In this document: in pieces, positions 46-17,167 of the stretch
How positions within the stretch are numbered: position 1 is the stretch's first letter
How the letters are laid out: each line of letters opens with the position of its first letter
Virus record (IMG/VR): IMGVR_UViG_3300020147_000026
Span: 1 to 23,468 of that record
Direction: 5' to 3' (one strand)
Length of the DNA stretch: 23,468 nt
From: a virus
Position numbers and translations under genes: made by a program
Notes under the pieces: model-generated
Seen by the model: only the letters and a program-made list of their open reading frames with translations
Databases searched by the model: none
What the model was told of the DNA's origin: nothing

Positions 46-240
46 TTAGTTAATTTCATTTTTTCTTTGTTCTGATAAACATTCCATATGAACCTGAGAA
101 CCACCCTTAAAATAAGGGTCAAAATATGAAATTCTAGTGCTTACTTCATTATTACATTTTGCACATAAAATGTAGGTGTCTCCATGAATTGTTCCACCAA
201 TCTTATGTGTTGTATCACGTATAATTTTTTGTTTAAGCAT
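46..240 (-). CDS. small zinc-ribbon-like hypothetical protein
   Basis: I do not recognise this protein. From the ATG at 240 it is 64 residues long. It carries a Cys-x2-Cys pair (CAKC) followed about 25 residues later by H-x2-C (HMEC), which could form one zinc site. The reading frame stays open upstream to 294, but that part lies inside the tRNA-Tyr gene, so I chose the ATG at 240. It has a GAGG upstream, though about 12 bases away, which is rather far. It is the first gene after tRNA-Tyr on the same strand and may share its transcript. No function can be assigned. Confidence 0.6.
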   Translation of the reverse strand: MLKQKIIRDTTHKIGGTIHGDTYILCAKCNNEVSTRISYFDPYFKGGSQVHMECLSEQRKNEIN

Positions 241-262
241 AATAAATATTTTCCTCATTGAT

Positions 263-348
263 TGGTGCGTTAGGTAGGATTCGAACCTACTCACCCAGAG
301 GGAACAGATTTACAGTCTGCCGCAACTCTCCAACTTTGCCGCTAACGC
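263..348 (-). tRNA. tRNA-Tyr (anticodon GUA)
   Basis: A complete class II tRNA with encoded CCA. The acceptor stem GCGTTAG pairs fully with CTAACGC, followed by discriminator A and CCA. The D stem is GCAA/TTGC. The anticodon stem GCAGA/TCTGT holds loop CTGTAAA, giving anticodon GTA. A long variable arm and the T arm GTAGG-TTCGAAT-CCTAC follow. The long variable arm is what bacterial tRNA-Tyr has. It lies just downstream of the large structured RNA on the same strand, so RNase P cutting at its 5' end could release that RNA. Confidence 0.95.
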
Positions 349-778
349 ATTAAAACTTATACGCTCTCTGTTCTTTTTCAAGAATAAGTTGTACCGGAAG
401 ACAACCTAACAGATATAATCTATAGAGACGTATAAATTCTAAATTAAATGTTCATAAGGTTGAGACTACACTTATGAGTTAGCGCTTCAAGCATTATTGC
501 TACCCTTGCGAGGTAACTTTCTCTTGACGTCCACTAGACCTCTTGCGAGTATTCTAGTACGCTAACAACACCGCAGTTTTAAGTCATGCAATAGACTTGA
601 CATATGGTATTACTCTGTATCTTCATTTCCGTCTACCTTGCGGGCAGTTCGAGTTGGCAGCTCTACGAACTTTCTAATACAAACTAAATCATCCTTGCGA
701 GAATCATTAGACTCAGTTAACCGAAGTTCTGAGTATTAGGTGTCTTTCATACCATATCGGAACAGACTTTGCTTTTTA

Positions 779-862
779 ATCGATGGTTGGATTTGAACCA
801 ACTGCCGACTCCTTAAAATGGAGTTGCTCTACCAAATGAGCTACATGTGAACCTACCTCGAT
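779..862 (-). ncRNA. tRNA-Lys(UUU)-like fold embedded in the large RNA
   Basis: The D arm (GCTC...GAGC with the GGT-A loop), the anticodon arm (ACTCC/GGAGT, loop ATTTTAA, anticodon TTT) and the T arm (GTTGG-TTCAAAT-CCAAC) are all normal. The acceptor stem is not. The seven bases next to the D arm (TCACATG) do not pair with the 3' strand CATCGAT. A partner, ATCGAGG (6 of 7 pairs), lies 12 bases further out at 856-862. No CCA is encoded. Outside this, GGAACAG (minus strand, 866-872) pairs perfectly with CTGTTCC (759-765). The fold therefore looks like a domain of the large RNA rather than a free tRNA, though a decayed or oddly processed tRNA-Lys is possible. Confidence 0.7.
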
Positions 863-1402
863 GTGCTGTTCCTGTTGTTTCATATTCTTTTGGAATACAA
901 AATGCAACACACCGAATACCTTTTACCTGTCGGTTACTCAGTCATATTTCACGATATCTGTCTAATCTTTTTGGGATTATCCAGTAACCGTTAATATTGC
1001 ATATAAGCTCTAGACTACAACATCTCGAACCTATATACTACCCTTTCTCATACAAACTAACTGGTTGGTTTTGTTGTGAAGTCAGCACCACCTGTTACTT
1101 TCCTTTGACACTGTTTGTCCAGCTTCAAAAGCCGGCAGTAAGCCAAAGTTCTTTCCACAACACCAGCGTCATTCTTACCTCCACCAGTCTTATTAGTGAA
1201 GGAATCCTCGCGGATTTGAGCAGGCTTGCATAAATGGACTATTACTAGCGCTGGTATGTAGGCATTCCAGCTTTGGCCCTATCACTAGGGTTATCCTATT
1301 GAGATTATGCTCCCAATTTCTCAAACTCAATCAGGGGAGAGAGTTAAGGAATAAAAGGTGTCTATTCCAGGGGAATAAAAAGAATAGACACATAAATCAG
1401 TT

Positions 1403-1433
1403 TGGTTAATAAGTATGGATTCGAACCATAACC
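1403..1433 (-). ncRNA. T-loop hairpin followed by CCA, no matching tRNA 5' half
   Basis: On the minus strand TATGG-TTCGAAT-CCATA is a perfect tRNA T arm. It is followed by seven bases (CTTATTA), an A and CCA, exactly as at a tRNA 3' end. The 70-90 bases upstream contain no matching acceptor strand (TAATAAG would be needed), no D arm and no seven-base anticodon loop. They form a long hairpin around 1444-1482 instead. GGT/ACC at the edges can also pair. I read it as a T-loop element of the large RNA. Confidence 0.5.
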
Positions 1434-1719
1434 TCCGTTCCGTTTCTACACTTTGAATCGCTAAATTCTTCAGTGTATAATCCGGACTCAGTGTGCTTTC
1501 CTATACACTACTTAAAATACTGAATAGTCGGTTAGCGCCGAGTCTCCAGTACCCAAATTCGAAAGTTTTATCTGGGTTAGACTAATTTTCTGCTTGATTC
1601 GTATGAATCTCGATGCAGTTCCTGGCTTCCAACCAGGCGGTGGTTTATATGGTCAGGGTTGGAAGATAACCAATTTAGCTCACGCCTTTAACTCTCGTTA
1701 TATAAAATTAATCTAACTT

Positions 1720-1785
1720 AGATAAAACTTTAGTTCACCTTGGTTATACCCTTAGTTTTATAACCAAGGTGAACAAATTTTATCT
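1720..1785 (-). repeat. long hairpin, 16-bp perfect stem with imperfect extension
   Basis: The arms 1733-1748 and 1759-1774 are perfect reverse complements with a 10-base loop. The pairing continues with small defects through 1720-1732 and 1775-1785 to nearly 28 pairs. It lies just downstream, in minus-strand sense, of the 13-bp helix that closes the first domain of the large RNA. It could be a peripheral helix of that RNA or a processing site. It lacks a good U tract on either strand, so I do not call it a terminator. Confidence 0.7.
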
Positions 1786-2216
1786 GTAAAGGACACTAAG
1801 CCTATCCACGTCGTAACCTCAACCGAGATTGCAATCTCACCGGTATGTTCGTGCATACATAACGCGATACTTTATACTGCATATCCGTAGCGGCTTTTTC
1901 GGTAGCGTTAATTCAAGTCAGTCTTGGTTGTCCCAGTTTCATTCGTTGAATTAACCTAATTTATTAATGGGTCTATTTACGATTTAAATCCACCATGTCG
2001 TCAGGACCTGCGCGGTCAACGCGTATAGTGGTATAGGTTTCGTTTATAGTGTCCTTTACTATTGCTACTACATCAGTAGCTTGTCTATTTTACTTGATTA
2101 GGTGTTTGCCTAATCTTTCATCCAGAACCCCGCTATTTTTATACTTTTACTGTGTATCGGCAGAAGCGTCGCCAAACAGTTACTTCAAAGAGCGTTTACT
2201 GCTAAACTATTTGATA

Positions 2217-15823: not shown

Positions 15824-17167
15824 TTACAGAAGGTTCGTTACTCTGAACTTGCTGTAGTAGTAGTTATTACCTGCTGCTAGACCGTTACCAGCTGCATCAA
15901 GCGACGTGAATGGGTTGGCTACCATACCATATCTTGTCTTGTATGCAATCTTTGGTTGGAACGTATCTGGGTCAGTTGTTTTGTACATTTGCAATGGAAT
16001 ATATGGGCAGTAGTACATACCAGCATCCCATGCAGAAGGACCTTTATAACCTACCAATACGAATTGGTTAGCACCGTAGTTTGAAGCGTATGGGTCAACA
16101 TAAACCTTCATACCATTCTTAAGAACACCAGCAAATGTTGAGTTTGCTTCGTCTACAGAAAGGTTGTTTTGCAGAGCTGGATTGTAGTCCAGAATACCTG
16201 CCATCATAAGAGCCGAAGCTACATCTGATGAGCAAAGAAGGAAGTTAGCCTTACCTCTACGTGTTCTTTGAGCAACAACGTTCGCATCTCTTTCGATTTG
16301 GAACATCAGACCCTTGAACTTTTCAACTGACCAACGACCATTTGAATCTACATCAAGGTCGAATGTACCAGCTGTTGCTGTGTTGTTTTGAGCACCTGCT
16401 TTAGCTGAAACGTAAATGTTACGAATAACTTCACGGTTCATTTCGCTAAGAATTTCTGTTGAAAGAATCTTGCTCAATTCGCCTTCAGCTGAAAGACCAT
16501 GAACTGATTGCAAGTCTTGTGCCAATTCGATTGTGTATTCAGCTTTCAATGCACGTGTTTGCGCTGTAACTGAAGTACGTTCGATAGTGAATGACATTTC
16601 ATTGAATGTACCACCACCTGAGCTACCAAGAGCTTCTGCAGAAGCAGTTGTCATACCTGTACCGTATGTGTATGGGTCATCGAAAGGACCTGTACCTGCA
16701 TGAGCACCTGAACCTGTACGACCTGATTCAGCTGTTGACTTACCTGAGAAGTCTGAATCTGCTTCGTTGAACAAAGCTTCGTTACCTGATTGACCACCGT
16801 AACGAGCCTTCATCGCGAAGATAAGACCTGTAGGCTGTGTCAAAGGTTGAACACCACAAAGGTCATAAGCAATCATTTGTGGCATTGCTCTACGAACCAA
16901 GCTGATAAGCACTGGGTCATAACCAGCAACTGTAGCACCTGTTAGGGTACCTGCACCACCAAGAGCTAAACCACCACCACCAGCGTTAGCGTGAGCTGCC
17001 TCATTAAGAGGTTGACCACCATTAGCCTTGATTGCTTCTCTTTCTTGGTTTTCCAAGCAAACGGCAGTAACTTCTCTACGGTGCTTGTCAGTAATTTTTG
17101 GAGAGTTTGAATCATCCAATACTGGAGCCCATTTTTCAACTAATTGTTGAACTGTTAAATTTTCCAT
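15824..17167 (-). CDS. 23: major capsid protein gp23
   Basis: Precursor of the hexamer-forming shell protein, 447 residues (T4: 521). The conserved SLVRRAMPQMIAYDLCGVQPL region is at about residues 90-110, followed by PTGLIFAMKARYG and the C-terminal RYGMVANPF. The segment LNE|AAHA at residues 54-60 fits the gp21 cleavage rule (Leu/Ile-x-Glu), so mature protein would start at Ala57. A late promoter TATAAATA lies at 17195-17202, and the strong UUCG terminator follows the gene. The high expression expected of this gene fits both. The shorter length probably reflects a smaller insertion domain. Confidence 0.97.
   Translation of the reverse strand: MENLTVQQLVEKWAPVLDDSNSPKITDKHRREVTAVCLENQEREAIKANGGQPLNEAAHANAGGGGLALGGAGTLTGATVAGYDPVLISLVRRAMPQMIAYDLCGVQPLTQPTGLIFAMKARYGGQSGNEALFNEADSDFSGKSTAESGRTGSGAHAGTGPFDDPYTYGTGMTTASAEALGSSGGGTFNEMSFTIERTSVTAQTRALKAEYTIELAQDLQSVHGLSAEGELSKILSTEILSEMNREVIRNIYVSAKAGAQNNTATAGTFDLDVDSNGRWSVEKFKGLMFQIERDANVVAQRTRRGKANFLLCSSDVASALMMAGILDYNPALQNNLSVDEANSTFAGVLKNGMKVYVDPYASNYGANQFVLVGYKGPSAWDAGMYYCPYIPLQMYKTTDPDTFQPKIAYKTRYGMVANPFTSLDAAGNGLAAGNNYYYSKFRVTNLL

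What the first reader, a model, noticed from the sequence alone, without database searches (positions are those of the whole stretch)
759..872. A tRNA-Lys-like fold clamped inside the large RNA
The D, anticodon (UUU) and T arms are perfect, but the acceptor strand is displaced by 12 bases, no CCA is encoded, and an outer 7-bp helix (759-765/866-872) encloses it. That outer helix abuts the 9-bp helix closing 601-759. This reads as a tRNA used as a structural domain of a larger RNA and links the flanking parts into one molecule.
Basis: seen in the sequence. Interest (0 to 1): 0.75.

Follow-up and report, generated by a model that had tools for sequence, protein, structure and literature searches.

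The report
tRNA cassette inside GOLLD phage RNA
A marine T4-like phage carries the known giant RNA GOLLD, and in the loop that faces the inside of its RNA cage sits a transfer-RNA fold with a crippled end, so it is probably a swappable structural part of the cage rather than a working tRNA.

Summary
The tRNA-Lys-like fold is real (minus strand 846-783; Rfam tRNA 49.9 bits). It lies in the variable linker of a GOLLD RNA (Rfam RF02032, 224 bits, 457-915; 5' domain to about 1317). tRNAs in GOLLD linkers have been reported before, so the kind is known.

I compared 98 distinct GOLLD linkers, mostly from IMG/VR. The 759-765/866-872 helix is conserved and covarying with or without a tRNA, so it is GOLLD's own helix, not a tRNA clamp. 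The 12-base displaced acceptor pairing is not conserved. In 77 parsed linker tRNAs the D, anticodon and T stems are nearly perfect, while outer acceptor pairs 1-3 pair at about chance (0.51/0.36/0.62). CCA follows in 2 of 77. Standalone tRNAs in the same loci pair at 0.96-1.0, and 527 of 567 have CCA. Seven have 8-nt anticodon loops, and anticodons drift within lineages. Two GOLLDs identical outside the linker carry different tRNAs. The window's tRNA core is 93% identical to one in a GOLLD only 68% identical elsewhere. One linker holds a circularly permuted tRNA.

Best reading: a domesticated, non-decoding tRNA domain, exchanged as a cassette. What it does in the cage is not shown.

The parts
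457..1317 (-). GOLLD RNA (3' domain 457-915 by Rfam; 5' domain to about 1317 by alignment to L080)
   Evidence: 224 bits, model 1-416 complete; 72.5% over 877 nt to the GOLLD of L080, covering 1317-461
866..872 (-). 5' strand of the outer 7-bp helix, GGAACAG; lies inside the first Rfam hairpin, so the helix is a pseudoknot in that model
   Evidence: sequence; covariation
759..765 (-). 3' strand of the outer helix, CUGUUCC
   Evidence: sequence; covariation
766..865 (-). variable linker of GOLLD, between the two strands of the outer helix; conserved rims GUAGGUU (856-850) and GCAAAG (772-767)
   Evidence: literature on linker position
783..846 (-). tRNA-Lys(UUU)-like fold: acceptor stump 846-844/785-783 (3 bp), D arm 841-826, anticodon arm 824-808, T arm 802-786
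   Evidence: (Rfam tRNA 49.9 bits)
815..817 (-). anticodon UUU
   Evidence: sequence
602..610 (-). 3' strand of the 9-bp helix of the GOLLD 3' domain
   Evidence: alignment, sequence
749..757 (-). 5' strand of the 9-bp helix; one base from the outer helix
   Evidence: alignment, sequence
263..348 (-). tRNA-Tyr(GUA), a normal tRNA gene with encoded CCA, downstream of GOLLD

Best explanation
The locus is a GOLLD RNA of a T4-like phage. Its linker, which in the solved GOLLD structure points into the hollow of a 14-chain RNA cage, holds a domesticated tRNA. The tRNA entered from the phage tRNA pool. Its outer acceptor pairs and CCA are gone, and it hangs on the GOLLD helix by a stump of 3-5 bp plus the conserved rims GGUU...GCAAAG. 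I infer that losing the outer acceptor pairs stops RNase P and 3'-end enzymes from cutting the tRNA out of GOLLD, and that it is not charged and does not decode. The arms are kept because the folded L-shape (D/T elbow and anticodon arm) is what is used, as a compact body shown inside the cage. Linkers are exchanged between GOLLDs as cassettes. Shown here: GOLLD identity, retained arms, lost acceptor pairs and CCA, anticodon drift, cassette exchange. Inferred: no cutting, no charging, display inside the cage. What the tRNA domain binds is unknown; a tRNA-binding host factor (ribosome, tRNA-processing or tRNA-cutting enzyme) is the likeliest class.
For: GOLLD at 224 bits with the tRNA in its linker. 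98 distinct linkers: 77 parsed tRNAs, 5 more recognisable by eye, 1 permuted, 15 without (the sample is biased toward tRNA-bearing forms). Acceptor pairing by position 1-7.51 .36 .62 .91 .94 .94 .96, shuffled about .45 for 1-6; D, anticodon and T stems perfect in 73, 74 and 73 of 77. 527 standalone CCA-ended tRNAs in the same loci.96-1.0 at every position; CCA encoded in 527 of 567 against 2 of 77. 8-nt anticodon loops in 7 of 77; near-identical tRNA bodies with different anticodons, e.g. L028/L076 and L055/L086. At least 40 anticodon-state changes on a 66-tip tree of the GOLLD body. L207/L211: one substitution in about 500 nt outside the linker, tRNA cores 65% identical with sharp edges. Window/L080: cores 93%, bodies 68%. 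Linker cores are closer to other linker cores from diverged GOLLDs than to any of 502 standalone tRNAs in 39 of 47. Published: no free pseudo-tRNA detected in mycobacterial GOLLD; linker lies inside the cage.
Against: No RNA data exist for this locus. A few linkers hold intact or nearly intact tRNAs (L057 with 7 bp and CCA, L143 with 7 bp), so some may yield working tRNAs. About 15% of the GOLLDs sampled, and the whole Lactobacillales-like branch, do without a tRNA, so it is not essential to GOLLD. The 3-bp stump of the window is shorter than most. Retention of U33 (74 of 77) and mostly normal anticodon loops could mean some use of the anticodon arm.
Confidence: 0.78

Rival explanations
1. The linker is merely a permissive landing site next to tRNA arrays. 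tRNA genes fall in by recombination, do nothing there, and decay until replaced or deleted.
For: L057 and L143 look like fresh arrivals; some relatives differ by presence or absence of the tRNA (L017 vs L026); GOLLDs lie among many tRNAs (25 ARAGORN calls around L045).
Against: Decay should hit all stems alike; only acceptor pairs 1-3 are lost, while D, anticodon and T stems stay about 95% perfect and covary. Linker cores form their own pool, not close copies of standalone tRNAs.
Confidence: 0.15
2. It is a functional tRNA-Lys gene nested in GOLLD. RNase P and other enzymes cut it out and the host adds CCA.
For: Arms and anticodon UUU are normal in the window; the homologous Caulobacter phage element is annotated as tRNA-Lys; ARAGORN linker tRNAs.
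Against: Only a 3-bp acceptor stump and no CCA in the window; outer acceptor pairs at chance level in homologs; odd or stop-reading anticodons and 8-nt loops; northern blots of a mycobacterial GOLLD found no free pseudo-tRNA.
Confidence: 0.05
3. The linker tRNA is bait: inside or on the cage it attracts host enzymes that cut or modify tRNAs during phage defence, and cassette exchange is driven by the variety of such enzymes. (A more specific form of the best explanation.)
For: Fast cassette exchange in otherwise identical GOLLDs; anticodons lean to GUU, UUU, CUU and UCU, 43 of 70 seven-nucleotide loops against 54 of 536 standalone tRNAs.
Against: The anticodon lean may be shared descent of cassettes, not selection; no defence enzyme was tested; some lineages have 8-nt loops that would not match a target.
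Confidence: 0.12

Closest known systems
GOLLD RNA, Rfam RF02032 (Weinberg et al. 2009; Kretsch et al. 2025, PMC12286853)
   Same: Complete match of the 3' domain, phage genome, near a tRNA gene, variable linker, and a tRNA in the linker as reported for some GOLLDs
   Different: Cryo-EM env-38 has a 42-nt disordered linker; whether a GOLLD with a tRNA in the linker also forms the cage has not been shown in what I could read
Pseudo-tRNA inside the GOLLD of Mycobacterium (PMC6582537)
   Same: tRNA-like element inside GOLLD, judged a pseudo-tRNA, no free product seen on northern blots
   Different: Mycobacterial tRNA cluster, not a T4-like marine phage; acceptor loss and cassette exchange were not described in the passages I read
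tRNA-Lys annotated in Caulobacter phages CcrMagneto, CcrKarma and CcrSwift
   Same: Same position in GOLLD, CUU anticodon in CcrMagneto, acceptor pairs 2 and 3 broken, no CCA
   Different: Annotated as an ordinary tRNA gene, which this analysis suggests is a misannotation
tmRNA and viral tRNA-like structures
   Same: tRNA fold built into a larger RNA
   Different: Those keep a chargeable or CCA-like 3' end (own knowledge); here the acceptor end is the attachment point and is not chargeable by sequence

Membership tests
GOLLD (RF02032) | Covariance-model score above the curated cut-off over the whole model | tested here: met
   224 bits vs 150, model 1-416
GOLLD (RF02032) | Variable linker between 5' and 3' domains, sometimes with a tRNA | tested here: met
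   tRNA at 846-783 inside the unpaired model columns
GOLLD (RF02032) | 5' domain present upstream | tested here: met
   72.5% identity to the L080 GOLLD over 1317-461
GOLLD (RF02032) | Phage or prophage genome, near tRNA genes | tested here: met
   T4-like capsid protein 60% to Pelagibacter phage HTVC008M; tRNA-Tyr at 263-348
GOLLD (RF02032) | Forms a homo-oligomeric RNA cage | not testable with these tools
   needs in vitro RNA and cryo-EM
tRNA gene | D, anticodon and T arms | tested here: met
tRNA gene | 7-bp acceptor stem | tested here: not met
   3 bp; ARAGORN makes no call
tRNA gene | CCA end (encoded in most tRNAs of these phages) | tested here: not met
   none in the window; 2 of 77 linker tRNAs vs 527 of 567 standalone
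tRNA gene | Processed, charged, used in translation | not testable with these tools
   needs tRNA sequencing and acid-gel northern blots

The most novel reading that the evidence does not exclude
GOLLD cages carry up to 14 inward-facing tRNA mimics that act as exchangeable bait or docking sites for host tRNA-handling machinery (tRNA-cutting defence enzymes, ribosomes or processing factors), and linker cassette exchange adapts the phage to different hosts.
Probability: 0.15. Interest if true: 0.9.

Novelty: new member of a known kind. Interest (0 to 1): 0.55.

Why it matters
GOLLD has a known cage structure but no known function. The linker is the one part that reaches the interior. Showing that it holds a tRNA fold kept under selection without its acceptor end, and exchanged as a unit between nearly identical GOLLDs, gives two concrete tests: does RNase P leave it alone, and does the phage need it? 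It also warns annotators: tRNA finders call these elements as real genes, including apparent stop-codon readers (L024 UUA, L139 CUA, L115 UCA), which could be mistaken for evidence of recoding in phages.

Tried and rejected
Displaced acceptor pairing: no excess over shuffles. Intron-containing tRNA search of the window: gave only a doubtful tRNA-Leu-like hit at 1403-1517 outside GOLLD. tmRNA: none in the window, although CcrMagneto has a permuted tmRNA nearby. A pattern aimed at more permuted tRNA linkers returned no further GOLLD linkers. Donor search: apart from L057 (a self-match of its own intact linker tRNA), no linker tRNA is a near copy of a standalone tRNA in the same loci. A neck helix UUCGC/GCGAA vs UUGCA/UGCAA looks compensatory in two groups, but only 2 bp are possible in the window, so it is not claimed there. 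Key papers (Weinberg 2009, Weinberg 2017, Morgado 2020) are not held.

Full report
What is there. The window is a 23 kb piece of a T4-like phage: the capsid protein at 15824-17167 is closest to Pelagibacter phage HTVC008M and Methylophilales phages, about 60% identical, and the record is an IMG/VR-type virus fragment. The minus strand at 457-915 matches the whole Rfam GOLLD model, RF02032, at 224 bits against a cut-off of 150. Alignment to the GOLLD in L080 extends the RNA to about 1317. The finding lies in the unpaired, variable columns of that model, the linker.

The tRNA. Infernal scores 846-783 (minus) as tRNA at 49.9 bits, but only model positions 5-66 of 71 match, and ARAGORN makes no call. 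The three arms are perfect. The acceptor stem is a 3-bp stump, AUG 846-844 with CAU 785-783. There is no CCA. In 77 homologs the pairing possible there is no longer than after shuffling (3.26 vs 3.29 bp). I reject it.

The outer helix. GGAACAG 872-866/CUGUUCC 765-759 is exact. Its 5' strand lies in an internal loop of the first Rfam hairpin and its 3' strand after the linker, so it is a pseudoknot that Rfam's model cannot show. Among 98 distinct GOLLDs it has 7 of 7 pairs in 96 and 6 of 7 in two, with 28 different sequences. That set was partly chosen on the helix, so I repeated the count on GOLLDs picked by other motifs only: all five variable pairs form in 51 of 53, and one of the two exceptions is probably a wrong anchor. 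Each of the five variable pairs exceeds all 1000 shuffles in the earlier set of 68; the last two pairs never vary. The helix is present in GOLLDs with no tRNA (e.g. L006, L011, L072, L094-L109). It is therefore part of GOLLD, and the tRNA sits in the loop it closes. It may be one of the published P stems; I could not check, because the 2009 paper is not held and the 2025 figures are not readable here.

Homologs. Patterns from the rims of the linker fetched GOLLDs from IMG/VR, plus the phages CcrMagneto and Phosso; motif search and blastn then picked them out. The share with a tRNA (82 of 98, one more permuted, 15 without) is not a fair estimate, since one pattern was modelled on tRNA-bearing rims. 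In the 77 that my parser could fit, pairing at acceptor positions 1 to 7 is .51 .36 .62 .91 .94 .94 .96. Shuffling partners gives about .45 for positions 1 to 6 and .72 for position 7. The parser rewarded positions 5-7, but not 1-4. The D, anticodon and T stems are perfect in 73, 74 and 73 of 77. The parser required a UUC near the start of the T loop and at least 4 pairs in the T and anticodon stems, so those scores are somewhat favoured; the five linkers it could not fit include one lineage with an altered D loop. Standalone CCA-ended tRNAs in the same loci pair at .96 to 1.0 in every acceptor position, and 527 of 567 standalone tRNAs encode CCA, against 2 of 77 in linkers (L057 and L184); the L057 linker tRNA itself is one of the 527. 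So the fold is kept and the acceptor end is not.

Decoding. Seven of 77 have 8-nt anticodon loops, including L080, which holds the closest relative of the window's tRNA (cores 93% identical). Close pairs share the tRNA body but differ in the anticodon: L028 UGG and L076 UGA; L055 UUC and L086 with an 8-nt loop. A tree of the GOLLD body without the linker needs at least 40 changes of anticodon state over 66 tips (deep branches are weakly supported). ARAGORN reads three linkers as stop-codon readers. This is not how a decoding tRNA is expected to evolve.

Exchange. L207 and L211 come from different samples. Across about 500 nt outside the linker they differ by one base, yet from GUAGGUU to GCAAAG they carry unrelated tRNAs, 65% identical in the core. 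L123/L346, L162/L164 and L135/L217 have 98-100% identical 3' domains and different cassettes, but there the 5' side differs too, so recombination at the linker may have replaced more. The reverse also holds: the window and L080 share a 93% identical tRNA core in bodies that are 68% identical. Linker cores are closer to other linker cores from diverged GOLLDs than to any of 502 standalone tRNAs in 39 of 47 cases.

A permuted case. L045 has the T arm, acceptor 3' strand and CCA first, then the acceptor 5' strand, D arm and anticodon arm; the GOLLD strands enter at the variable arm and the acceptor stem is a closed hairpin. Two tandem tRNAs cut at both ends would give this order. The fold thus occurs in two topologies.

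How it most likely works. Published cryo-EM puts the GOLLD linker inside a 14-chain RNA cage and notes that phage tRNAs are sometimes in the linker (PMC12286853). A mycobacterial GOLLD was reported to hold a pseudo-tRNA with no free product on northern blots (PMC6582537). From established knowledge, bacterial RNase P recognises the stacked acceptor and T stems, and charging needs the acceptor end. I infer that an intact tRNA such as L057 would be cut out of GOLLD, and that loss of pairs 1-3 protects the large RNA. The kept arms then suggest that the elbow and anticodon arm are used as a shape inside the cage. The partner is unknown.

Novelty. A tRNA in a GOLLD linker is known; this locus is a new member. 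In the papers I could search I found no account of the position-specific acceptor loss, the anticodon drift, the cassette exchange or the permuted form; that is absence from a limited library, not proof of priority.

Noticed in passing
L045 7608-7718: GOLLD linker with a circularly permuted tRNA-Leu-like element: T arm, acceptor 3' strand and CCA precede acceptor 5' strand, D arm and anticodon arm (anticodon GAU); attached to GOLLD through the variable arm.
   Followed up: partly
window 1395-2200 (-): A second strongly structured stretch upstream of GOLLD: helices of 16, 14, 13 and 12 bp, no Rfam match at gathering score, no relative in any fetched locus.
   Followed up: partly
window 1403-1517 (-): T-arm-like UAUGG-UUCGAAU-CCAUA followed by CUUAUUA-A-CCA; ARAGORN with introns calls a doubtful tRNA-Leu with a 20-nt anticodon-loop insert. 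Could be another tRNA-like end, in the second structured RNA.
   Followed up: no
L001 2181-2500 (-): Permuted tmRNA in Caulobacter phage CcrMagneto, on the opposite strand to its GOLLD (Rfam 70 bits).
   Followed up: no
L024, L139, L115 linkers: ARAGORN calls stop-codon-reading tRNAs (anticodons UUA, CUA, UCA) that are GOLLD linker domains, a trap for claims of recoding in phages.
   Followed up: partly
L165, L153, L196, L170, L122 linkers: A lineage whose linker tRNA has a shortened D loop without GG and a UUCAAAA T loop, so the elbow may be broken.
   Followed up: no
GOLLD linkers: Neck pairing UUCGC/GCGAA in one group and UUGCA/UGCAA in another, consistent with a compensatory second closing helix; weak in the window.
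   Followed up: partly
window 46-294 (-): An 82-aa open frame overlaps the tRNA-Tyr gene at 263-348 on the same strand.
   Followed up: no
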